Shown here: piece by piece, positions 52,009-63,576 of the stretch
How positions within the stretch are numbered: the first letter of the stretch is position 1
How the letters are laid out: every line of letters begins with the position of its first letter
DNA from: Mycobacterium stomatepiae
GTDB lineage: Bacteria; Actinomycetota; Actinomycetes; Mycobacteriales; Mycobacteriaceae
Direction of reading: 5' to 3'
NCBI RefSeq assembly: GCF_010731715.1
Contig: NZ_AP022587.1
Span: 1-64,000 of the forward strand
DNA: 64,000 nt
Program-made: the position numbers and the translations under genes
Notes under the pieces: model-generated
What the model saw: the letters and a program-made list of their open reading frames with translations, nothing else
Databases searched by the model: none
Told to the model about the DNA's origin: nothing

Positions 52009-53343
52009 ATGGCGGCCGTGCCCGAAACGGTCTATGCGCGAGACGGCGATGCCCATCTCGCCTATCAGGTCGTGTCCGACAACGGTCCGGATCTCTTGTT
52101 CGTCCCCACCGGCACGTTCCCGATCGATCTGCTGTGGGAAGAACCCACCGTCGCCGGCCATTTACGTCGGTTGTCGTCGTTCAGCCGGCTGATCATGACC
52201 GACCTGCTCGGGGTGGGTAGCTCGGATGCGGTGCCGATCAACGACCGTCCGGCGATGCAGGCGTGGACGGACGGTCTCGTCGCGGTGCTGGACGCCGTCG
52301 GCAGCGAGTGCGTGACGGTCTTCGGGATGTCCGAGTCGGCGCTGCCGGTGATGCTGCTGGCCGCAAGCCATCCGCACCGGGTGCGGTCGTTGGTGTTGTG
52401 CAGCGCGTACCCCCGCTTTCTGCGCGCCGAGGACTATCCGCACGGGATGCCCGAGCCGACCTTCAGCCGGTATGTCGACTCGTTCGGCGACACCGTCGGG
52501 CGTGGCGGTGTGGCGGATAACCTGGGGCCCAGTTTTGCTCGCGATCCTGGCAAGCGGCGCTGGTGGGCGCGCGGTGAGCGACTGTCCGGCGGCCCCGGAT
52601 ACTTCAAAGAGGTCTTCGACCTCTTCCTGCGCACCGATGTTCGGCCGGCGGTGGAGAGCATCCAGGCGCCGACGCTGCTGCTGCATCGCGTCGGCGACCG
52701 GCACGTGATCGGCGGCCATGGTCGCTATCTCGCCGAGCGCATCCCGCAGGCGCGGCTGGTGGAGCTCGACGGGGACGACGACGTGTGGTTCGCCGGCGAC
52801 GCCGATCGGGTGCTCGACGAGATCGAATCGTTTGTCACCGGCGGGCGAGCGGCCGCGCCGACCAACCGGGTGCTGTCGACGGTGCTGTTCACCGACATCG
52901 TCGGGTCGACCGAACGGGCCGAGTCAATCGGCGACGATGCGTGGGCGGTCGAGCTGGACGCACACAACGAGATCGTTCGAAAGCATGTGGTGAGCGCGCG
53001 GGGTGAGGTCGTGAAGTTCACCGGCGACGGCGCTCTGGCGACCTTCGACGGACCGGCGCGAGCGATCAACTGCGCGTGCGCGATTCGCGACTCGGTGCAC
53101 GACCTCGGGCTCAACATCCGCGCCGGCTTGCACACCGGCGAGGTAGAGGTCGGTAATGGTGACGTGCATGGCATCGCGGTTCATGTGGCGGCGCGCATCA
53201 TGGCGATGGCGGGGCCGGGGGAGGTCTTCGTGTCGGGCGTGATTCCGCCGCTGGTGCTCGGGTCTCGGATCTCGTTCAAGAGCCGCGGCACGCACGAACT
53301 CAAGGGTGTGCGCGGCCGCTGGCCGGTGCTGGCGGTGGTCTAG
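52009..53343 (+). CDS. Class III adenylate cyclase with N-terminal alpha/beta-hydrolase domain
   Basis: 444 residues. Residues 1-280 are an alpha/beta-hydrolase (LLFVPTGTFPIDLLWEEP, VTVFGMSESALPVMLLAASH, with Ser in G-M-S-E-S). Residues 285-444 are the cyclase homology domain: VLFTDIVGSTERAESIGDDA (metal Asp), VVKFTGDGALATFDGPARAI (second Asp and the purine-side Lys) and NGDVHGIAVHVAARIMAMAG. The usual transition-state Asn is His here (VHVAARI), as in several mycobacterial relatives, so activity may be low. The hydrolase part may sense a lipid or ester. Confidence 0.9.
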   Translation: MAAVPETVYARDGDAHLAYQVVSDNGPDLLFVPTGTFPIDLLWEEPTVAGHLRRLSSFSRLIMTDLLGVGSSDAVPINDRPAMQAWTDGLVAVLDAVGSECVTVFGMSESALPVMLLAASHPHRVRSLVLCSAYPRFLRAEDYPHGMPEPTFSRYVDSFGDTVGRGGVADNLGPSFARDPGKRRWWARGERLSGGPGYFKEVFDLFLRTDVRPAVESIQAPTLLLHRVGDRHVIGGHGRYLAERIPQARLVELDGDDDVWFAGDADRVLDEIESFVTGGRAAAPTNRVLSTVLFTDIVGSTERAESIGDDAWAVELDAHNEIVRKHVVSARGEVVKFTGDGALATFDGPARAINCACAIRDSVHDLGLNIRAGLHTGEVEVGNGDVHGIAVHVAARIMAMAGPGEVFVSGVIPPLVLGSRISFKSRGTHELKGVRGRWPVLAVV

Positions 53344-54641
53344 CTCCTCCTGGCGTTCGGTGTGAGCGTGACGGGCAGCTTGCTCAGTCCGGTCATGCTC
53401 GGGTTGCTCATGTATTGGTGTGCTTTTTGGAGGTCGACCTGGTAGTCGGGGATGCGGTCGAGAAGCGCCTTGACCATCACCTCGGACATCAATCTCGCGA
53501 GGTGCGAGCCGATGCATCGGTGGGGACCTAGCCCAAAAGCCAAGTGGCGGTTGGGCGTTCGATCGAGGACGACTTCGTCGGGGTGTTCGAATTCCTTTTC
53601 ATCATGGTTGGCCGACAGCCAGCTGATGATGAGCCGGTCATTTTTCTTGAGATGCTGACCATCGAGCTCGACGTCCTTGGTGACCGTGCGGCTCAGGGAT
53701 CGGTTGACCGTGAAATATCTGAGGAACTCGTCGGTGGCGGTGCGGTAGAGGTCCGGGTTTTCGATGAGTTGTCTTCTCAGTTCGGGGTGGGTGCCCAAAT
53801 GTCTTAGGGTGAGCGCGGTTTGGGAAGTGGTCGTGTCGACGCCGCCGGCGATCAGGTTCCAGAGGATATTGAGCAGCTGTGTGTCGTCGAGTTTTTCGCC
53901 TTCGAACTCGAATTGGATCAGGAAGCTGGTCAGGTCTTCTCGATTGTCGGCCCTGCGGTTTGCTGCGTGCTGGAGGACTTCCTCCATTATGGCCGGGACT
54001 TTGCCGATGGCTTCGGCGTATTCGGGGCTGTCCTGCGGGACGGCCATGACATTGTGGAACGTGCTGGCGTAGAGGTGCCAGTTGTCGAGGGGCAGGCCCA
54101 TTAGCTTCATCGTAAGGATGGCCGGGACCGGGCTGGCGTAGTCGAGGACGAGGTCCATGTGTCCGTTGGGGGCGTGCTGGTCGAGGGACTCGTGGGCCTT
54201 TTCCTCCATGAACGGCTTGAGCTTCTCGACGGCGCCGGGGGAGAAGTACGGGGCCAGGGCATGCCGTAGGGCGAGGTGGTAGTCGCCGTCGACTTCGCCG
54301 ATGCCCAGGGCCGGTTGACCTTCCGGGCGCGGGACGCCCATCTCGCCTTGGTAGTTCATGCCGTTGGCGGCGCCGGGCTCGTACTTGTGGGAGAACGTAG
54401 CGTCGTCTCGGGCGGTTTGGCTGACGGCGTCGTAGCTGCTGAGATACCAAAACCCGTCGTATCTGCTGTTCCACGCGACGGGGCATTTCTGCCTCAAGTC
54501 GGCGTTGATGGTGTCGTGGTTTTCGTTGAACTCGTCGGAGTGATGGTCGAAGTCGACGATCGCATCGTGCGCGACGTCTTTGCGGCTGGTCGTTGATTGC
54601 TTTCTGGCTATCTTTGCATTATTAAGCTTTTGGAGCCGCAA
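53340..54641 (-). CDS. Cytochrome P450 (second)
   Basis: 433 residues, as read from TTG 54641. I-helix LIAGGVDTTTSQTALTLRHL, ExxR in DEFLRYFTVNRSLSRTV, haem loop HLAFGLGPHRCIGSHLARLM with Cys near residue 377. Start doubtful: no ATG or GTG lies before AHDAIVDFDHHSDEFNENHD, and the TTG is only 14 bases from the start of the divergent VOC gene. Codon choice and GC look slightly lower than neighbours. It probably acts with the adjacent VOC protein. It overlaps the cyclase gene by four bases, convergently. Confidence 0.92.
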   Translation of the reverse strand: MRLQKLNNAKIARKQSTTSRKDVAHDAIVDFDHHSDEFNENHDTINADLRQKCPVAWNSRYDGFWYLSSYDAVSQTARDDATFSHKYEPGAANGMNYQGEMGVPRPEGQPALGIGEVDGDYHLALRHALAPYFSPGAVEKLKPFMEEKAHESLDQHAPNGHMDLVLDYASPVPAILTMKLMGLPLDNWHLYASTFHNVMAVPQDSPEYAEAIGKVPAIMEEVLQHAANRRADNREDLTSFLIQFEFEGEKLDDTQLLNILWNLIAGGVDTTTSQTALTLRHLGTHPELRRQLIENPDLYRTATDEFLRYFTVNRSLSRTVTKDVELDGQHLKKNDRLIISWLSANHDEKEFEHPDEVVLDRTPNRHLAFGLGPHRCIGSHLARLMSEVMVKALLDRIPDYQVDLQKAHQYMSNPSMTGLSKLPVTLTPNARRS

Positions 54642-54655
54642 CTGAAGTAGGAGCC

Positions 54656-55108
54656 ATGACTGATCATCGAACGGTTTTCAATCATGTGGGCTTGTGCGTC
54701 AGGGATACCGAGCGGTCCCGGCGGTTCTACAAGAAAGTACTCGGTTTCCAGTACTGGTGGGAGCTCGAACCACCGGACAACACGACGGCCCAGGTGGTGC
54801 AGCTTCCCGAGCCGCTCGGGGTGAAGGCAACATATTTGGTGAAGGACGGCTTTGTGCTCGAACTCCTCGACTACTCGAAGCGCGAAGTGCATGCTGGGGC
54901 GACACGGGTCATGGATGAGGTTGGGCTTACGCATATTTCGCTGTCGGTGTCTTATCTTCCTCGTGTCCTCGAGAAGGTTCCGGAGTTCGGGGGGTCGGTG
55001 GTCGATGCGGCGGTGTCGGAAGCGATGGGCATCATCCGCGACCCAGACGGCCAACTCATCGAGCTGGTGACCGATGGATGGCTAGCGGCGCTGCCGCCGC
55101 GGCCGTAG
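54656..55108 (+). CDS. Glyoxalase/VOC-family protein
   Basis: 150 residues from ATG 54656 with TAGGAG six bases upstream. Both VOC halves are complete: FNHVGLCVRDTERSRRFYKK, VLGFQYWWELEPPDNTTAQV, VLELLDYSKREV in the first, GLTHISLSVSYLPRVLEKVP and GIIRDPDGQLIELVTDG in the second. Metal positions His, Glu, His, Glu appear intact, so an isomerase, lyase or dioxygenase role is possible. Divergent from the P450 with almost no space. A perfect hairpin follows at 55112. Confidence 0.88.
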   Translation: MTDHRTVFNHVGLCVRDTERSRRFYKKVLGFQYWWELEPPDNTTAQVVQLPEPLGVKATYLVKDGFVLELLDYSKREVHAGATRVMDEVGLTHISLSVSYLPRVLEKVPEFGGSVVDAAVSEAMGIIRDPDGQLIELVTDGWLAALPPRP

Positions 55109-55253: not shown

Positions 55254-55628
55254 TCATCGCGCCTCATATTCTTCGCCATCGCCAGGGCCTGATACAACTA
55301 CTGACTGCTCAGACGCGACGTTGCACGGACACCATTGGCCAACTCCGCCGTGGCTAGAGCAGGTACCACTCCGGTGCTCGCTATGGGAGCACGAACCATC
55401 TTTGCAAACAGCTGTCGCGACTGAACACGAGCTGTCTGGACTCGGAACGCAGTTGCCACTAGTGCCTTGATACGTGCCAGTCGGACATTCAAGGTATCGA
55501 GCTTGTGAATTCGCGATTGCATCCAGCGTTTGATCGTTCGTCGGCGATAGCGGTTCCGCCGTGATTGACGGGGTCATGTATATCGCAACTGCTGCAGCGA
55601 TTGAAGCGAGAATGCCGGGGCAACTCAT
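55254..55628 (-). CDS. Small secreted DUF3761-like protein
   Basis: 124 residues. The signal peptide (MSCPGILASIAAAVAIYMTP, cleavage near SITA-EP) is followed by a domain with CPTGTYQGTSGNCVPSP and the DUF3761 pattern CKDGSCSHSEHRSGTCSSHG and GVGQWCPCN. Eight mature cysteines suggest four disulfides. DUF3761 proteins occur in actinobacteria, proteobacteria and phages, with unknown function. It lies at the edge of the accessory region, and its upstream gap (55629-55785) is AT-rich with no gene. Confidence 0.72.
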   Translation of the reverse strand: MSCPGILASIAAAVAIYMTPSITAEPLSPTNDQTLDAIANSQARYLECPTGTYQGTSGNCVPSPDSSCSVATAVCKDGSCSHSEHRSGTCSSHGGVGQWCPCNVASEQSVVVSGPGDGEEYEAR

Positions 55629-55785
55629 TGCTGTCTCCCTGTTACGCGTCTATGCACGGTGTGCGCGCGCAACACTAGGCTAGATTCGATGCCTCCGGAC
55701 GAGATCCACAAAACTTGATATTTGTTAGCCCACGCGGGCGTCGGCCGTTGACCGCCGTTAACGCCGCGACGAATACCCATCGGGG

Positions 55786-56589
55786 TTATTCGATCCTGTC
55801 ATGCTTCGCCAGATTGTGCCGCGCGCATAGCAATTGGATGTTGCTCTCGACGAGGGATGACCCTCCGAGTGAGTAGGGGATAACGTGATCGAAGTGCAAG
55901 TTGTCATTGCTTCCACATCTGACGCACTTGCCCTTATCGCGCTGCCACACTGTCAGTTTCACGGTGGTTGGAATGACTCGGTTCTGCTCGAGCACCGGCT
56001 CTCGTGAATCGGTAATTGGAGTCGCGGTTGGATCTATCTCGAGGCGGAATTTGAAGACCATTCGTTGGTTCGATTGCTCCCGCCAGGCGTCGATAAGGCG
56101 GAACGTTCCGTTGAAGGTCCAGATGCCAGTGCGGATCTTCTCGTACACCCGAACGTGCTCAGCGGACGCCCCTGCTTCCCGGTGGCGACTGGCGGCTTGC
56201 AGGAACAAACCGTTCTGCGTCAGCGCACCACGCGGCGTTCTTTCAGGCTGGTCCAGAGTCTTGGGGTCCGGACCGCCTTTGATCTGCGGAGCGTCGTGGC
56301 CTTCGTAGATAAGAACTCGGCCATCTTTCTCGACGCGATCGTCGTAAGGTGCGCCCGGTCGGCGGCTCATTAAAGCCACGCTAGGTCTTTCGCTGCGGTA
56401 ATTCATACCGCGCTGCAAACTGATCCCTTCCTCGCGGCACATGTCCAAGTAGGAAACGACGTCACCAGGAACTACCACAGCCCGATCGTAGGCGGTTCTA
56501 CAGCTCTTCGACCCAATACGGCGTGGGACTGCAGTATCGCCATTTGCAGCCAGTGGATCAGTTGTATGCGGTACTACCCGCGACAGCAT
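55786..56589 (-). CDS. SRA-like plus HNH endonuclease, modification-dependent restriction type
   Basis: About 267 residues from ATG 56589; GTG 56478 is an alternative start, since neither has a clear ribosome binding site. Residues about 50-200 look like an SRA/YDG base-flipping domain: SVALMSRRPGAPYDDRVEKD, GRVLIYEGHDAPQ, LTQNGLFLQAASRH and VRVYEKIRTGIWTFNGTFRL. The C-terminal HNH module is KCVRCGSNDNLHFDHVIPYS plus NIQLLCARHNLAKHDRIE, with both zinc Cys pairs and the catalytic His. SRA-HNH proteins such as TagI and VcaM4I, and ScoMcrA, cut DNA carrying modified bases. No cognate methylase is nearby. Its 5' end overlaps the kinase gene. Confidence 0.75.
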   Translation of the reverse strand: MLSRVVPHTTDPLAANGDTAVPRRIGSKSCRTAYDRAVVVPGDVVSYLDMCREEGISLQRGMNYRSERPSVALMSRRPGAPYDDRVEKDGRVLIYEGHDAPQIKGGPDPKTLDQPERTPRGALTQNGLFLQAASRHREAGASAEHVRVYEKIRTGIWTFNGTFRLIDAWREQSNQRMVFKFRLEIDPTATPITDSREPVLEQNRVIPTTVKLTVWQRDKGKCVRCGSNDNLHFDHVIPYSLGGSSLVESNIQLLCARHNLAKHDRIE

Positions 56590-58117
56590 GCGTTGTGCTG
56601 ATGATTTTAGCGGCGCAGTGGTCCCGATCAAATCCCTGGCTTCTGCACCATGTCAGCGCACCAGCGGAGTCCTGAAATGTAATGCCCGCCACGGTGACCC
56701 AGAAGTCAGGTCCAGAAAACGTCGACCAGTCGCCCGACCAGAGCAATTTCACACCTGGGTAGTGCTGTCGGAGCTGCAAGTGTTCCTGAAGCGTCATAGC
56801 GTTGTCCCACACGACGCCGTTGTCGACGACCCCGGGACGCTTCGAGCTAAGTTGAGGGACCCAGCGGTCAGCAAGATTTGTGTATACGGATGAGTGATCG
56901 TCATTGGCGATTTGTCGCAGTTGCTGTGCGGGTTCTTTGGACGCAGACGTCGCCGTGGTGGTCGCTTGGGCCGTGCGCGATGTCGAAGGCGATGCCGTGT
57001 CGTACGCCGTTGGCACTGGGTTGGAGTAGGGGACAAGTGACGACGTTGCTGGCTCCGAACTGGAATTTCGATTGGCAAGGAGACCGATGGCCACTCCAAC
57101 TCCGCCCACTACAAGTGCTGCGGCGATTCCGATAGCGGTAACGACGATTAGGTGTCTTGAGCGCCCGCTATCACCCGTGTTCGCAATGGTGGGACCTGTT
57201 GCACGAGGACCATATTGAGCGATAAACGGAGGGAAGCTGGGTGGCCCGGCGACGTGCCGTGGCGCGAGGAGCGTATCCGGCTGGGACAGGGCAGGTTCTA
57301 CTGAAAGTGCGCGCTTTGCTGCGCGTCCCAATGCTCCGGCACTCCCGTAGCGATCGTTGGGGTGTTTTGCCATGCCACGCCCGATGACCTCGTCGAAGGA
57401 CGCGGGAATGCGCGTATTTACTGCGCTGGGGCGCGGGGGTTGGGATGCCAGGTGAGCGCCAATGATTTGTTCTGCGCTGTGCACTGGAAACGGTTTGGCG
57501 CCTGTCAGCGCCTCGTAGAGCACGCAGGCCAGCGAGTAGACGTCGACGGCAGGGGTGGCTTCCGTATCGCCGAATCGTTCGGGAGCCATGTAGTCAAAGC
57601 TGCCAACTTGATAGCCCGCCATCGTCAGACGAGTCTCGCCCGTGGTCTCTGCGATACCAAAGTCCACCAAGTATGCGAAGTCATCCGGTGTCACGATAAT
57701 GTTCTGCGGCTTCACGTCGCGATGGATAAGCCCTTGGGCATGAGCCGCATCCAAGGCCGCCCCGATCTGCCCAATGATGGCTACTGCACGGTCCGGGTCG
57801 ATCGCCCTTCTTTTGAGCAAGTCAAATAGTGTTTCACCTTGGACGAGTCGCACGTCGATGTAGAGAACGTTGTCGATTTCGCCCCAATCATGGATGGGGA
57901 TCACGTGTGGCTCTTGAAGAACTGCGGCGGCACGCGACTCACGCAAGAACCGGGCGCGAAATGCCCCATCTTCTGCGTATTGTTCCTTGAGTAGCTTCAG
58001 TGCGACGGTCCTACCCTTTTCGGCGTCGTAAGCCTCGTAGACCTCGCCCATCCCGCCTTTTCCGAGCAGGCGCCTAATTTCGTACTTACCGAACGTCTCG
58101 CCGACGAGCGACTTCAC
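56558..58117 (-). CDS. Transmembrane Ser/Thr protein kinase (PknA/PknB-type)
   Basis: 519 residues from GTG 58117, with GAAGGGAAG about six bases upstream. The Hanks-type kinase domain fills residues 12-275: LLGKGGMGEVYEAYD, VALKLL (Lys41), LIHRDVKPQN, LVDFGIAE and GSFDYMAPERFGD. A membrane helix (about 323-350, VTAIGIAAALVVGGVGVAIG) is followed by a Ser/Thr linker and an extracellular domain of about 115 residues (DRWVPQLSSKRPGVVDNGVV, GALTWCRSQGFDRDHCAAKI) with one Cys pair. It may phosphorylate neighbours such as the EcsC protein, but this is inference. Divergent from the EcsC gene. Confidence 0.92.
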   Translation of the reverse strand: MKSLVGETFGKYEIRRLLGKGGMGEVYEAYDAEKGRTVALKLLKEQYAEDGAFRARFLRESRAAAVLQEPHVIPIHDWGEIDNVLYIDVRLVQGETLFDLLKRRAIDPDRAVAIIGQIGAALDAAHAQGLIHRDVKPQNIIVTPDDFAYLVDFGIAETTGETRLTMAGYQVGSFDYMAPERFGDTEATPAVDVYSLACVLYEALTGAKPFPVHSAEQIIGAHLASQPPRPSAVNTRIPASFDEVIGRGMAKHPNDRYGSAGALGRAAKRALSVEPALSQPDTLLAPRHVAGPPSFPPFIAQYGPRATGPTIANTGDSGRSRHLIVVTAIGIAAALVVGGVGVAIGLLANRNSSSEPATSSLVPYSNPVPTAYDTASPSTSRTAQATTTATSASKEPAQQLRQIANDDHSSVYTNLADRWVPQLSSKRPGVVDNGVVWDNAMTLQEHLQLRQHYPGVKLLWSGDWSTFSGPDFWVTVAGITFQDSAGALTWCRSQGFDRDHCAAKIISTTHAVAGSTAYN

Positions 58118-58296
58118 CGCATCTTCCCTTCTTCGTCGAAGCCAGTATCCGCCGCGAGGGTTGGGTACGCAGACGTTTGCCCAAGAAGCCTTGTACCTGC
58201 TCAATGCGCACATGCCACAGGCTGTGACTCTGCGCATGCCTTTGGGGCTGAGCGAGGGGAAGATGTCCCTGGGCACATTTACGTCGGGAGCATCGG

Positions 58297-59318
58297 GTGG
58301 CGTTATCTGAGTACGAGCAAGAACAGCTCAAGAGGGTCAACGCGCACAAAAAGCGAACCCTTAAGCGGTCGTCGCGTCGATTAATTCCCTTCACGGTAAG
58401 TGGATTGAGCTCGGGGCTGGCGGGCCAGGTGCTGAAGCTGCCCGGCCTTCGCGAGGCGAAAGACCAAGGCACTGCACTGTTCGACGGAGCGGCGGCGGGC
58501 GCGGGCAAAGTCATGAGCAGGACGAGTCAACGTCTGACGCTCAAGTAATCGGTGCCTATGCGAAAAATGGTCACGCCGTAGATCACATCGAAGACATCAG
58601 GAAGCTCGACCTGAAAACCGTGGACGAGGTGGCGTCATTCACGCTCTTGCATCACGCCTACTCGCTATCCGCAGCGGCAGAAGGTGCGGCAGCCGGCCTT
58701 GCCATCAACAGCGGCGAGGTAGTGGCAACTGCCGGTTCGGTCGCAACTGGCGGAGTCTCAGCCGCACCGGGACTCGGTACCGTCGTTGCTGCGATGGGTG
58801 TCGATGCCGCCGCGCTTTTGACCGCTTGCACCGGCGTCGTGGCGCGGGATGCCCTCTATTACGGCTACGACCCGCGTGATCCCGCCGAGGAGATCTTCAT
58901 GATGCAAGTCATCGGGCTAGCCCTGGCAACGACGGCATCGGCAAAAGCCGCTGCCTACCAACAGCTCACAGCATTGACAGAAAGACTCAATGAAAATGAG
59001 GCTTGGTATCAGCTCGACCAGCAGGAGTTCGACAAAGTTGCTCAACGCTTCGCCGTTGAGTTCAGCCAGAAGTTGATGAACAAGAGGATCTTGCAGCTGC
59101 TGCCCGTCGTCGGAGTCGGTATCGGCGCGGCCTTGAACTGGAAGACGGTCAACGCGATTGCCGATGCTGCGTATTGGGCGTACCGCGAGCGCTTCTTGTG
59201 CGAAAAGGGCGGCGAAACCGAGCCCATCGCAATTAATGTCGATTCCGCCGACGATGATCTAGCGGCGATTGATGTTGTCGACATCCTGAAGTCGGAAGGC
59301 GTCCACCCCGGCGAGTGA
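58297..59318 (+). pseudogene. EcsC-family protein, one frameshift
   Basis: From GTG 58297 (GGGAG six bases upstream) the first 83 codons read MALSEYEQEQLKRVNAHKKR to SRTSQRLTLK and stop. One base back, the frame continues VIGAYAKNGHAVDHIEDIRK, SAAPGLGTVVAAMGVDAAAL, YYGYDPRDPAEEIFMMQVIG and LQLLPVVGVGIGAALNWKTV with WAYRERFLCEK. The second part is clear EcsC (Gly/Ala-rich amphipathic segment, YGYD, LPVVGxxxG). The break is near 58540 and fits loss of one base. EcsC-like proteins are linked to membrane or secretion functions and appear in some defence-associated gene sets. Confidence 0.75.
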
Positions 59319-59331
59319 AAGGACGGGCGCG

Positions 59332-59788
59332 TTGGACCCCATAGCTGTGGCAGACGCAATTGCGGCCGAGGCGCATGCGGGCCAGGTCGACAAGGCGGGC
59401 ATGCCTTATGTCGGACACGTCCGCAGGGTGGCGTCCTACGTCGATCCCGCCAACACCGACGCCGTCGTCGCGGCATTGCTTCACGACGTCATCGAGGACA
59501 CCGCCATCGACGCGGCCGAACTAGCCGAGCGCGGTATCCCCGCCCAAGCGATCGATGCGATCGAGCTGCTCACCCGCCGCGACGACCAGCCGTCCGCCAC
59601 CTACTACCAGCGCATTAGCGAGCACCCAACCGCTCGCGGACCTGGCCGACAACACCGATCCCGATCGCCTGGCCACGCTGCCCGAGTCCGACCGGGCCCG
59701 CCTCACCCAGAAGTATGCGGGCGCCTACGCGGCACTAGATGCCGACTTCGACGACGGTGTCCGCCGCAGAGCGCGTGCGGCACAATAG
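59332..59788 (+). pseudogene. HD-domain phosphohydrolase (SpoT/MESH1-like), one frameshift
   Basis: From TTG 59332 (AGGA upstream), the frame reads VADAIAAEAHAGQVDKAGMP, YVGHVRRVASYVDPANTDAV, VAALLHDVIEDTAID (HD motif) and AIDAIELLTRRDDQPSATYY. The frame then changes near 59630 and ends PLADLADNTDPDRLATLPES with ARLTQKYAGAYAALD. The parts make a standard small ppGpp-hydrolase-like HD protein of about 150 residues. It is 14 bases after the EcsC gene on the same strand, so the two probably formed an operon. Confidence 0.75.
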
Positions 59789-59791
59789 CTT

Positions 59792-59896
59792 TCAGCAATC
59801 GACGTAACGGCTGATGGTGTCCGCAAGTGTCGGCACGGCGCCGCCGGTTTGAGACTGCGCGGAGGCCAGATACAGCGGCGGGCTGACGATTTCGGA
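59792..59896 (-). pseudogene. C-terminal remnant of a LysR-family regulator
   Basis: About 34 codons, SPPLYLASAQSQTGGAVPTL followed by ADTISRYVDC and a stop, match the last residues of the intact LysR protein at 61450-62331 (TLYLASAASQTGGAVKALVD, TITRYVEN). The DNA is clearly related but diverged, so it is an old paralog, not a fresh duplication. The rest of that gene is gone, replaced by the REP13E12 element. Confidence 0.7.
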
Positions 59897-60047
59897 TTGG
59901 CGGTGGTTGCGACGAGCCACCGCCAACCACGGTCGATGGTCGGCAGAGTCTGTGGACAAACTCGTGACTGTGGATACGGACGCGAGGCGTGCCCGGCGTG
60001 GAGTTGAGCGGCCGAAATTTGTCGGCCCCGGTTGCGAAGATCTTGTT

Positions 60048-61206
60048 ATGTCTTCGACCACATCGGTTCCCGCGGCGGTGAGCCCTAAGGAGCGGCTTGA
60101 GGTGTTGTTCGATGAGTTGGCGGAGTTGGCTGGTCAGCGTAATGCGGTTGATGGGCGCATTGTGGAGATCGCCGCCGAGATCGATCGTGACGGGTTGTGT
60201 GGGATGACGGGGGCGCGGTCGGTGGCGGCGTTGCTGGGGTGGAAGCTGGGTTCTTCCTCGGGCAATGCCCATACGATCGCCACGGTGGCGCGCCGCTGGG
60301 AGGAGTTTCCCCGCTGCACGCAGGGGATGCGGGAGGGTCGGCTGTCACTGGATCGGTCGGGGTGATCGCGGCCCGAGCGAGCGACGGCTCTGATGAGCAT
60401 TACGCGGCGTTGGCCAGCGTTGCCACCGTCAGCCAGTTGCGCACCGCGGTCAAGCTGGAACCGCGCCCCGCACCCGAACCCGCTTGGCCGCAGCCGCAGG
60501 CCTCGATCACCCAGACCTCTGACGAGGAGTTCACGTGCTGGCGGATCAAACTTGCGCACCCGGACGCGGCGAAGTTCGACGCGGCACTGGCGTCTCATCG
60601 TGATGCGCTGATCGCCGAGTGGAAGCGGGACCACGACACTGGCGGCGCCCGCACGGGCAGCACACCACCGTGGTCGTGCACGTCGATGTGGCGCAGCGCA
60701 CGGCGGCGCTGCATCTGGGTCCGCTGCTCACCGACGCCGAACGCCAGTACCTCACCTGTGATGCCACCTGTGAGGTGTGGTTCGAACGGGATGGCGAGGT
60801 CATCGGCGCCGGGCGCACGACGCGGTTGATCAACCGGCGGCTCCGCCGCGCCCTCGAGCACCGCGACCAAACGTGTGCGGTTCCCGGCTGTGGGGCCACC
60901 CGCGGTCTGCACGCACACCACATCCGCCATTGGGAAGACGGCGGTCCCACCGAGTTGTCCAACCTGGTCTTGGTGTGCGCGTACCACCATCGGTTGCACC
61001 ACCGGGGCGTCATCACCATCAGCGGACCCGCAGACGATCTCACCGTTACCGACGAGGACGGCCGACCGCTGCGCCCAGGGTCGCTGGCACGGCCGCCCAC
61101 CCATGCCCCGCCCGATGTCCCACCCTGCCCCGGGCCCACCGGGGAACGCGCCCAATGGTGGTGGTACCAACCTTTCCAACCCCAACCGCCACCAACAACC
61201 AACTAG
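60048..61206 (+). pseudogene. REP13E12-family DUF222/HNH protein, two frameshifts
   Basis: From ATG 60048, MSSTTSVPAAVSPKERLEVL is the usual DUF222 opening (LAELAGQRNAVDGRIVEIAA, GMTGARSVAALLGWKLGSSS). The frame breaks near 60350, where CTGGATCGGTCG needs one A to give SLDQVGVIAARA. It breaks again near 60640 before HGQHTTVVVHVDVAQRTAAL. The HNH module is RDQTCAVPGCGATRGLHAHH followed by LVLVCAYHHRLHHRG. About 20-30 residues in the middle also seem missing. REP13E12 copies in M. tuberculosis serve as integration sites for the phiRv1 prophage. Confidence 0.88.
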
Positions 61207-61405: not shown

Positions 61406-61449
61406 TTGGACGACGAGACCGGCACAGATCCCTTGCAGCGCAATGAAAG

Positions 61450-62331
61450 TCAGTTCTCGACATACCGCGTAATCGTGTCGACGAGAGCCTTTACGGCGCC
61501 GCCGGTTTGGGACGCCGCTGAGGCCAGATACAGCGTCCAGGTCAGCGACGGGCTCAACGGAATCGTGCGTAGGTCGGGGAACCGCTCGGCCGCACTGATC
61601 GGCAGCACGGTTGCGGCCAGCCGGTGTCGCACCAGCTCAGCGGCGATCGCGTAGTCGGCGACTTCGTAGGCGCTCGTCGGATGCACGCCCGCCTCGGCGA
61701 AACCCGCGTCGAGGCGCTGGCGGATTCCCCACCCGCGCGGGAAGTTAATGAAGTCCAGCCCGTCGAGATTCCCCAAAGAGACATGGCGACGACGCGCCAA
61801 CGCATGGCTGGATTCGCAAACGAAAACCATCGGCTCATGCGTCAATTCGCGGACCGCAACCAACCGCGACGGCGATGAGGACAGGGATACCAGCGCGAGG
61901 TCCATCTTGCCGTCGGCGATCGCGTCGAGATGGCCGGCCGACCCGGTGAGGCTTTGGCGCAGCTGAACCGACACCAACGGGTGCAGGCGACGGAACTCTT
62001 CGAGCACCGCCGCGAGATTCAGCCCACCCCAGGACATCAGCGTGCCCAGCGTGACGGTGCCGGTCAGCTGATCGCGGTAGTCCGCCACCGACGCCTGCGC
62101 GCGCTGCGCGGTGTGGATGACGTCGCGGGCATGCTGCAGGAAGACCTCGCCGGGAGGTGTGAGCACGATTTGGCGCTTGGACCGGTCGAACAGCTCGACA
62201 CCCAGTTCCTTTTCCAGCCTGGCCACCGATGCCGACAGCGCGGACTGCACGACATGGATCCGCTGGGCCGCCCGCGAGAAGTTGAGCTCCGCGGCCACCG
62301 CGACGAAGTACTCCAGCTGCCGCAACTCCAT
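61450..62331 (-). CDS. LysR-family transcriptional regulator
   Basis: 293 residues, MELRQLEYFVAVAAELNFSR. The winged helix (residues 1-60) is standard: AAQRIHVVQSALSASVARLE, KELGVELFDRSKRQIVLTPP. The substrate-binding domain follows (VTLGTLMSWGGLNLAAVLEE, FPRGWGIRQRLDAGFAEAGV). It is divergent from the quinone-oxidoreductase-like and intradiol-dioxygenase genes, the classic layout for a LysR activator of an aromatic catabolism operon. The inducer is unknown. Confidence 0.92.
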   Translation of the reverse strand: MELRQLEYFVAVAAELNFSRAAQRIHVVQSALSASVARLEKELGVELFDRSKRQIVLTPPGEVFLQHARDVIHTAQRAQASVADYRDQLTGTVTLGTLMSWGGLNLAAVLEEFRRLHPLVSVQLRQSLTGSAGHLDAIADGKMDLALVSLSSSPSRLVAVRELTHEPMVFVCESSHALARRRHVSLGNLDGLDFINFPRGWGIRQRLDAGFAEAGVHPTSAYEVADYAIAAELVRHRLAATVLPISAAERFPDLRTIPLSPSLTWTLYLASAASQTGGAVKALVDTITRYVEN

Positions 62332-62432: not shown

Positions 62433-62630
62433 ATGACTCGGAACAGCCTGGCCAAGCTGGCCGTTGTGTCGCCACCCGACGCCCGGCAAACCGCGAGCCG
62501 CGCAACGGTCAGGGGAAACGACCCATTCCGGGCCGGGTCCGCACCCCACGAGCCCGGCACGGCACCCAACTCGACAGCTAAAGTGACCATCACCTCCCGG
62601 AGGAACAGCCATGCGAGCCTTGCGCTTTGA
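62433..62630 (+). CDS. Possible short protein or leader, doubtful
   Basis: ATG 62433 has a good GGGAGGA six bases upstream, and a 65-codon frame follows, MTRNSLAKLAVVSPPDARQT, ending ITSRRNSHASLAL. The later part looks non-coding and overlaps the next gene's start. It may be the truncated head of a lost gene, or a leader between the LysR-controlled promoter and the oxidoreductase gene. Confidence 0.25.
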   Translation: MTRNSLAKLAVVSPPDARQTASRATVRGNDPFRAGSAPHEPGTAPNSTAKVTITSRRNSHASLAL

Positions 62631-63576
62631 CACGTTCGGTGACCCCACCGTCCTGCACATCGAAGATCTGCCAGATCCGAACGCAGCGGAACAGGACGCG
62701 GTGATCCGCGTCGAAGCGGCATCGGTCAACCCGTCCGACGTGAAAAACGTTGCCGGCCTGATGGACTGGACCGTGCTGCCGCGCACCCCCGGACGGGACT
62801 TCGCCGGCGTCGTCGTCGATGGTCCACCCGAATGGGAAGGCGCAAGAGTGTGGGGCACCGGCGGGGACGTCGGCTTCAACCGCGACGGCTCGCACGCCGA
62901 GCTCATCACGGTGCCCGTCGAAGCACTGGCACGCCAACCGGAAAAACTGACCTTCGACGAGGCCGCGACCGTCGGCGTCAACTTCGTGACCGCCTGGTAC
63001 GGCGCGGTCGAGACGGCGCAACTCGCGGCCGGCGAAACGATCGCAATCTTCGGTATCTCCGGGGGAGTGGGCGGTGCGGTCGCGCAGATCGCGCACGGGC
63101 TGGGCGCCCGAGTGATCGGCGTGGGCCGTCGCAAACCCGAACCGGAAACACCCGCCGCCAACGCCATCGACGAATTTGTCACCCTCGGCCCCGACGTCGC
63201 CTCCGAGGTCAGACGACTCACCGACGGCAAAGGTGTCGAGGTCGTGTACGACGCCGTCGGCGGTGTCACCACAAACGCGGCACTGGCGTCGCTCGCGCAC
63301 CGCGGCCGGCTCGTCGTCATCAGCACCACCGGTTCGCCAGAAGTCACGATCGACATAAAAGCGCTGTACCGCAACGAAACCCGCATCTTCGGTGTGGACA
63401 CCGGTAAACTCGGCGTCACAGACTCCGCGCGACTATTGCAGAAGATGTTGCCCCACTTCGAATCCGGCGAGTTCCGGCCACTGCCCATCGCCGCCCGCTA
63501 CCCCCTCGACCAAAGCGCAGCCGCGTACGAAGCGGTCGGCGGCCGAATCGCCGGCCGCGTGGTGATCAACCCCTGA
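62611..63576 (+). CDS. Quinone-oxidoreductase-like medium-chain dehydrogenase
   Basis: 321 residues from ATG 62611 with CGGAGGA seven bases upstream. MDR family: GroES-like N-terminus (MRALRFDTFGDPTVLHIEDL, VNPSDVKNVAGLM, LPRTPGRDFAGVVV) and Rossmann domain with IAIFGISGGVGGAVAQIAHG (AxxGxxG) then RVIGVGRR, a basic residue pair favouring NADPH. The catalytic-zinc cysteines are absent, so it is a zinc-free quinone/enone reductase. It precedes the intradiol dioxygenase by 11 bases. Confidence 0.92.
   Translation: MRALRFDTFGDPTVLHIEDLPDPNAAEQDAVIRVEAASVNPSDVKNVAGLMDWTVLPRTPGRDFAGVVVDGPPEWEGARVWGTGGDVGFNRDGSHAELITVPVEALARQPEKLTFDEAATVGVNFVTAWYGAVETAQLAAGETIAIFGISGGVGGAVAQIAHGLGARVIGVGRRKPEPETPAANAIDEFVTLGPDVASEVRRLTDGKGVEVVYDAVGGVTTNAALASLAHRGRLVVISTTGSPEVTIDIKALYRNETRIFGVDTGKLGVTDSARLLQKMLPHFESGEFRPLPIAARYPLDQSAAAYEAVGGRIAGRVVINP

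What the first reader, a model, noticed from the sequence alone, without database searches (positions are those of the whole stretch)
55254..59788. Candidate accessory defence module: SRA-HNH nuclease, transmembrane kinase, EcsC and HD hydrolase
A modification-dependent nuclease candidate (SRA-like domain plus HNH) overlaps, tail to head, a transmembrane Hanks kinase. Divergent from them are an EcsC gene and a SpoT-like HD gene. The nuclease and kinase are directly seen. EcsC, HD nucleotide hydrolases, kinases and SRA-HNH nucleases each occur in anti-phage gene sets, but this combination is not one I know. Both divergent genes are frameshifted and the set borders a REP13E12 element, so it looks like a mobile, partly decayed island.
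Basis: partly seen in the sequence, partly recalled or inferred. Interest (0 to 1): 0.7.

Follow-up and report, generated by a model that had tools for sequence, protein, structure and literature searches.

The report
Restriction-gene hotspot in mycobacteria
The four genes are not one defence system: they look like separate arrivals at a chromosomal spot, beside a P450 gene pair, where different mycobacteria keep different DNA-cutting and other accessory genes; here the intact defence gene is a small enzyme predicted to cut methylated foreign DNA.

Summary
The genes are real. The nuclease is an intact 230-aa SRA-HNH protein (modelled SRA fold; pocket-like and HNH residues kept); a modification-dependent (type IV) restriction enzyme is its best reading. 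Its "overlap" with the kinase is a start-codon artefact: 79 nt separate them. EcsC and HD are broken here and whole in relatives. The four-gene module is not supported: it recurs in none of 197 other sampled genomes of the genus, and nuclease, kinase and EcsC-HD each occur without the others. They are neighbours because the interval beside a conserved P450-glyoxalase pair is a variable site. In relatives the same place holds an EcoRV-like enzyme with a C5 methylase, an AspBHI-like enzyme with Vsr and a C5 methylase, a type III-like pair, another HNH protein, an N6 methylase, or non-defence genes. Of 18 C5-methylase genes in 44 such genomes, 6 lie within 12 kb of this point (0.03 expected by length; 4 of 16 without the two that prompted the test); two other restriction families showed no significant clustering. 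Defence hotspots are a known kind; the paper searches I ran showed no description of this one. New member of a known kind.

The parts
53340..54641 (-). cytochrome P450, left anchor of the variable site
   Evidence: Pfam p450 1.2e-28; called upstream of the glyoxalase in 44 of 46 loci kept, within 1 kb of it in 35 of the 44
54656..55108 (+). glyoxalase-like gene, inner edge of the left anchor; cargo begins past its 3' end
   Evidence: Pfam Glyoxalase 1.4e-11; found in 53 of 198 genus genomes, the window's included, at E<=1e-55
55254..55628 (-). DUF3761 protein; DUF3761 matches also lie past the glyoxalase in G131, G128, G060 and G130
   Evidence: DUF3761 3.2e-13; relatives
55786..56478 (-). intact SRA-HNH nuclease, 230 aa, GTG start (the frame stays open to 56631)
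56558..58117 (-). transmembrane Hanks-type Ser/Thr kinase, probable GTG start at 58117 (frame open to 58276)
   Evidence: Pkinase 5e-45; full-length orthologs in 22 other genus genomes, two of them with a stop inside the match; start and transmembrane stretch placed by eye
58297..58548 (+). EcsC gene, first piece (broken gene)
   Evidence: 43-70% identity over about 81 residues to EcsC genes of 7 relatives
58620..59318 (+). EcsC gene, second piece, in another frame
   Evidence: Pfam EcsC 1.3e-22
59332..59814 (+). HD gene (SpoT-like HD_4); about the first 102 codons match relatives, then the frame departs
   Evidence: HD_4 3e-7; 83-88% to G109, G131, G163 over residues 1-103
59761..59877 (.). 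copy of a LysR gene's 3' end on the near side of the repeat element
   Evidence: 117-nt direct repeat with 61419-61535, 72% identity; LysR match
59907..61206 (+). REP13E12-type DUF222-HNH element, in pieces
61450..62331 (-). LysR-family regulator, start of the right anchor in G131 and G109 (product name by eye)
   Evidence: 90% to G131 and 96% to G109, same order
62611..63576 (+). alcohol dehydrogenase-like gene, right anchor (product name by eye)
   Evidence: 80-83% in G131, G109, G416, same order

Best explanation
The stretch is one allele of a variable chromosomal site (a hotspot) whose fixed edge is the P450-glyoxalase pair; in the window's closest relatives found, the other edge is LysR and/or the alcohol dehydrogenase gene. 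Genes arrived there separately: EcsC-HD-repeat element (shared by G109, G131, G416), the kinase, and the SRA-HNH nuclease. The intact nuclease works alone as a type IV restriction enzyme: its SRA domain flips a 5-methyl- or 5-hydroxymethylcytosine out of incoming DNA and the HNH domain, as a dimer, nicks or cuts nearby. The host has no detectable C5 methylase, so its own DNA is spared. EcsC and HD are decayed passengers and the kinase is an ordinary signalling kinase. Shown: domains, predicted fold, intact frame, independent distribution, variable cargo, C5-methylase clustering, no C5-methylase match in the host. Inferred: the cutting mechanism, defence role, passenger status, lack of a partner and order of arrival.
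Against: Two other restriction families do not cluster significantly at the site: N6_Mtase 1 of 43 matches, expected 0.08; Mrr_cat 1 of 47, expected 0.09. Much cargo is not defence: sulfatase, PE-CBM2-glycoside hydrolase, GMC oxidoreductase, cyclase, FMO, radical SAM, FIST. By the scans made, 11 of 46 loci hold a restriction-type nuclease or DNA methylase; the rest were not shown to. The control side is not free of candidates: PADLOC PDC-S48 (2 proteins), PDC-S11 (1), DEDDh (2) and a kinase (1), and HipA_C, PIN and an exonuclease in Pfam. The nuclease-kinase junction of about 80 nt is kept in M. alsense, so a functional link there is not excluded. I searched nuclease neighbourhoods only for relatives of the window's own genes, so another partner is not excluded. 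How cargo is exchanged is unknown. The 0 of 5 for C5 methylases is weak: 0.10 by chance at the rate of 16 of 44, and completeness of two of the five genomes was not told. The length-share expectation assumes evenly spread genes.
Confidence: 0.78

Rival explanations
1. A four-gene anti-phage module: HD and EcsC signal or act at the membrane, the kinase controls, the SRA-HNH nuclease cuts.
For: All four are adjacent; the second EcsC piece has PADLOC candidate matches (PDC-S29 2.7e-9, PDC-S30 2.5e-4). Nuclease-kinase adjacency recurs in M. alsense. Other Hanks kinases lie beside EcsC in G103 and G095.
Against: No recurrence of the set in 197 other genus genomes; nuclease, kinase and EcsC-HD each occur without the others. 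In 80 nuclease loci (3.2-16.7 kb held, some cut by contig ends) EcsC has no match, HD one weak match 4.5 kb away (L141), and this kinase only L130 (whole) and L128 (its end, at a contig edge), both at this same site. PD-T4-6 matches of the kinase are generic: a control-side kinase matches them too.
Confidence: 0.04
2. Nuclease and kinase form a two-gene unit: the kinase senses an envelope signal (for example phage adsorption) and switches the nuclease.
For: Same strand, 79 nt apart; 80 nt apart in M. alsense.
Against: Kinase orthologs at the same site lie beside other genes: HNH in G001, DUF3761 in G128, an AspBHI-like gene in G187. In IS-836 about 6 kb lie between. The nuclease family is large (7735 of 7997 scored proteins at E<=1e-8), and in the 78 kept loci other than L128 and L130 a kinase match lies near only 2, L139 and L144.
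Confidence: 0.08
3. EcsC with the SpoT-like HD protein is a two-gene defence or stress pair of its own, sometimes with a Hanks kinase nearby, that has decayed here.
For: EcsC-HD adjacent in 5 of 9 genomes with a close EcsC (window, G109, G131, G163, G416); a Hanks kinase directly beside EcsC in 3 of 9 (window, G103, G095). EcsC gives PADLOC candidate hits.
Against: Four of the five EcsC-HD copies are at this one site and the fifth, in G163, is 23 kb from its glyoxalase on the same side, so all may be one inheritance; HD relatives in G048, G028 and G041 have no EcsC match within 1.5 kb; no paper of the held library has the words EcsC, anti-phage and defense together.
Confidence: 0.15
4. The P450-glyoxalase flank is merely a fast-rearranging region, with no particular pull for defence genes.
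For: Much cargo is metabolic or unknown; N6_Mtase and Mrr_cat are not significantly enriched. No other variable site of these genomes was measured for comparison.
Against: C5 methylases 6 of 18 against 0.033 expected; no restriction-type model on the control side in PADLOC at 1e-20.
Confidence: 0.22

Closest known systems
TagI / ScoA3IV / TbiR51I SRA-HNH modification-dependent endonucleases
   Different: Shorter (230 aa; TagI chain 285 residues); sequence search with one protein or a profile of 64 did not list TagI at E<=0.1; cutting not tested
MspJI/AspBHI-family and SUVH/UHRF SRA proteins
   Same: Shared SRA fold
   Different: Other catalytic or effector domains (recalled)
Bacterial defence hotspots / defence islands (recalled as a kind; other genera seen only in search listings)
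   Same: Fixed flanking genes, variable cargo, C5-type restriction genes over-represented
   Different: Anchor is a P450-glyoxalase pair in mycobacteria; no tRNA in the window; much non-defence cargo
EcsC family and SpoT-like small HD hydrolases
   Same: Profile matches
   Different: Both broken here; function in this pairing unknown

Membership tests
SRA-HNH modification-dependent restriction endonucleases | N-terminal SRA domain | tested here: met
SRA-HNH modification-dependent restriction endonucleases | C-terminal HNH domain with H-N-H residues | tested here: met
   HNH 1.4e-9, 64 of 64 family members; H198, N213, H221 invariant; assignment of the three residues is by eye
SRA-HNH modification-dependent restriction endonucleases | base pocket with two aromatic residues and a carboxylate | tested here: inconclusive
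   Y45, D47, Y58 invariant in 64 and in register with SUVH5; no bound base modelled
SRA-HNH modification-dependent restriction endonucleases | cleavage dependent on 5mC or 5hmC | not testable with these tools
   needs an assay
Defence hotspot | conserved flank with different cargo in different genomes | tested here: met
   7 loci with GLX and a common far gene, intervals 2.0-8.8 kb, differing content
Defence hotspot | defence genes over-represented in the cargo | tested here: met
   C5 methylases 6 of 18. Met for this family only: N6_Mtase 1 of 43 and Mrr_cat 1 of 47 are not significant
Defence hotspot | cargo protects against phage | not testable with these tools
   no experiment
Four-gene defence module | the genes recur together | tested here: not met
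   0 of 197 other genus genomes
PD-T4-6 defence kinase | specific match beyond the kinase domain | tested here: inconclusive
   Best model covers residues 53-351, a second one 56-460; a control-side kinase matches the same models

The most novel reading that the evidence does not exclude
The P450-glyoxalase site is a genus-wide mycobacterial defence hotspot in which 5mC-making systems and a 5mC-reading nuclease replace one another, and its uncharacterised cargo, including the EcsC plus SpoT-like HD pair, contains undescribed defence systems.
Probability: 0.25. Interest if true: 0.6.

Novelty: new member of a known kind. Interest (0 to 1): 0.42.

Why it matters
It turns one odd neighbourhood into a map reference: a place, recognisable by two conserved genes seen together in at least 42 of 198 sampled genomes of the genus, where restriction and other accessory genes can be read off genome by genome. 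That gives a short list of candidate defence genes in mycobacteria, where phage use and plasmid transformation both run into restriction, and it warns against reading function from adjacency at such sites.

Tried and rejected
The four-gene module was tested by presence/absence in 198 genus genomes and rejected. PADLOC PD-T4-6 hits to the kinase were set aside as generic. The nuclease as IscB or Cas9d: NCBIfam matches (2.3e-6, 0.013) cover the HNH part only and lie far below their cut-offs. The nuclease as plasmid or phage cargo: no phage record matched at 1e-15; two Deinococcus plasmids matched over residues 166-229 only. EcsC in wider sampling: 6 of 298 order-level genomes at E<=1e-40; the three outside the genus have no HD or kinase match to the window's genes within the 15-16 kb fetched. 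An insertion footprint past the kinase was looked for by alignment and not found; the DNA past the kinase stop did not align. The one direct repeat found flanks the repeat element, not the nuclease or kinase. N6_Mtase and Mrr_cat clustering: 1 of 43 and 1 of 47, not significant; that most of those matches are conserved genes elsewhere is my reading of their near-equal scores, not checked. I did not search for integrases; none is among the families shown.

Rows dropped: 9 of 52 fetched non-window glyoxalase loci were left out (L243, L244, L246, L256: little or no sequence past GLX; L250, L254, L255, L257, L259: no matching P450 in place). One search used the 44 of 46 loci with a P450 called (not L228, L235). 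Kinase rows under 45% identity were not printed. The kinase search scored at most 6 candidates a genome, so 22 orthologs is a lower bound. Individual Pfam scans covered 39 proteins of related loci, not all cargo; 11 of 46 is a lower bound. Family tables show only the first 25: of 116, 69, 141. One search listed 120 of 7735 proteins.

Papers: PMC6212794 was seen as outline with abstract, found passages and section 20; all others as search listings only. 'No description found' rests on (15 of 68 listed; 12 of 23; 4 of 4; 0 held).

Full report
What is there. The window lies in a 6.21-Mb single-contig genome; relatives at this site that could be named are mycobacteria. Between a P450 (53340-54641) and a LysR gene (61450-62331) lie, in order, a glyoxalase-like gene, DUF3761, an HNH protein with an SRA-like N-terminus, a Hanks kinase, an EcsC gene in two pieces, an HD gene whose frame departs after about 102 codons, and a DUF222-HNH repeat element in pieces. 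The reported overlap of nuclease and kinase is not: relatives start at about the GTG at 56478, 79 nt past the kinase stop.

Are the four a set? In 198 genomes of the genus the nuclease is whole only here and in G019 and G103 (75-77%), with pieces in G133 and G187 and matches to the HNH part in six more. Close EcsC genes occur in seven other genomes, close HD genes in three of these, and full-length kinase orthologs in at least 22 others. Fetched neighbourhoods (11 loci, 20 kinase loci, two short ones) show no second case of the set. In G103 nuclease and EcsC are on different contigs. Of 80 nuclease loci, this kinase lies near only in M. sp. IS-836 (whole) and M. alsense (its end at a contig edge), both at this same site; weaker kinase matches lie near L139 and L144, a second kinase 5 kb off in IS-836, one weak HD match near L141, and EcsC near none. 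I looked there only for relatives of the window's genes, so other partners of the nuclease are not excluded.

Why they are neighbours. The glyoxalase is in 53 of 198 genomes at E<=1e-55, the window's included. I fetched the 52 others, kept 43, and added the window and two named loci, 46 in all; P450 is called upstream in 44, within 1 kb in 35 of these. Past the glyoxalase the genes differ from genome to genome. Within 4.5 kb, 72 of 155 ORFs of at least 100 aa occur in one locus only and 24 of 155 in clusters of five or more; on the P450 side the figures are 45 of 168 and 71 of 168. The ORFs were called by a simple script, not a gene finder. Seven loci share a far gene (c8, an SMP-30-like protein); their intervals run from 2.0 to 8.8 kb with different contents. 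The window's close relatives make the point best: G131 has glyoxalase, a DUF3761 piece, EcsC, HD, repeat, LysR; G109 has among others an EcoRV-like enzyme, a C5 methylase and a kinase-like gene before EcsC, HD, repeat, LysR; G416 has EcsC, HD, repeat and a second EcsC; the window has the nuclease and kinase.

Is it a defence site? Individual scans found in the cargo: EcoRV-like with C5 methylase (G109), AspBHI_N/Mrr_cat with Vsr and C5 methylase (G187), HNH (G001); N6_N4 methylase with ResIII (G045), N6 methylase (G115), SNF2 helicases (G163, G164), a dynamin-like GTPase (G046); C5 methylase (G057), an AAA_21 ATPase (G037), a GmrSD_N match below its cut-off (G046). With the C5 methylases of G017 and G037 and the three nuclease loci, 11 of 46 loci hold a restriction-type nuclease or DNA methylase: window, L128, L130, G109, G187, G001, G045, G115, G057, G017, G037. 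PADLOC at 1e-20 lists 141 models on the cargo side, the 25 shown all DNA methylases and each met by three proteins, and 25 on the control side, none of restriction type, though these include candidate families PDC-S48 and PDC-S11, DEDDh and a kinase. Models are not genes, so this contrast is only supportive. Other cargo is plainly not defence.

A sharper test. PF00145 over 44 hotspot genomes gave 19 matches in 16 genomes, which I count as 18 genes because two in G157 are pieces of one frame; 6 lie within 12 kb past the glyoxalase, at 0.4 to 9.1 kb, all on the cargo side. By length share 0.033 are expected (Poisson 1.6e-12). Two of these, G109 and G187, had prompted the idea; without them it is 4 of 16 against 0.029 (2.9e-8). 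The same test with N6_Mtase gave 1 of 43 and with Mrr_cat 1 of 47, each expected about 0.08, not significant. So the pull is shown for C5-type systems, not for restriction in general, and no other variable site was measured for comparison.

How it likely works. The SRA-HNH enzyme should bind a flipped modified cytosine and cut nearby, as TagI does (PMC6212794 abstract). The host has no C5-methylase match, nor do the other four genomes with a whole nuclease, 0 of 5, while 16 of 44 hotspot genomes do. That fits a 5mC reader that cannot live with a 5mC maker, but 0 of 5 would arise by chance about one time in ten.

What stays open. The kinase and nuclease keep nearly the same spacing in M. alsense. 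EcsC sits beside HD in 5 of 9 genomes and beside some Hanks kinase in 3 of 9, a lead too thin to claim; in G163 the pair lies 23 kb from the glyoxalase on the cargo side, so even that copy may belong to the site. How cargo is exchanged is unknown: the window has no tRNA, and integrases were not searched for.

Noticed in passing
59761-59877 and 61419-61535: A 117-nt direct repeat (72%) made of the LysR gene's 3' end flanks the REP13E12-type element, and LysR pieces lie near it in G109, G131 and G416: perhaps an old duplication at the element's edges.
   Followed up: partly
L220 (G037), about 2.0 kb past the glyoxalase: A second glyoxalase copy with two stop codons lies inside the cargo, as if the flank had been duplicated when cargo came in; G037 has two C5 methylases here.
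   Followed up: no
L040:8673-11921, L043:6956-11614: EcsC genes of G103 and G095 lie directly beside other Hanks kinases (33-38% to the window's kinase).
   Followed up: partly
L212:6379-11310: A 1643-aa open frame past the glyoxalase of G017 has no Pfam match at 1e-5; likewise an 850-aa frame at L222:6951-9503.
   Followed up: no
L128:2456-5076: Two radical SAM proteins sit between the nuclease and the glyoxalase in M. alsense.
   Followed up: no
55254-55628: DUF3761 protein rich in cysteines towards its C-terminus; gave weak defensin matches (0.0071, 0.11), likely chance.
   Followed up: no
L114:7980-12309: G187 holds an AspBHI-like modification-dependent enzyme together with Vsr and a C5 methylase in one stretch.
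   Followed up: partly
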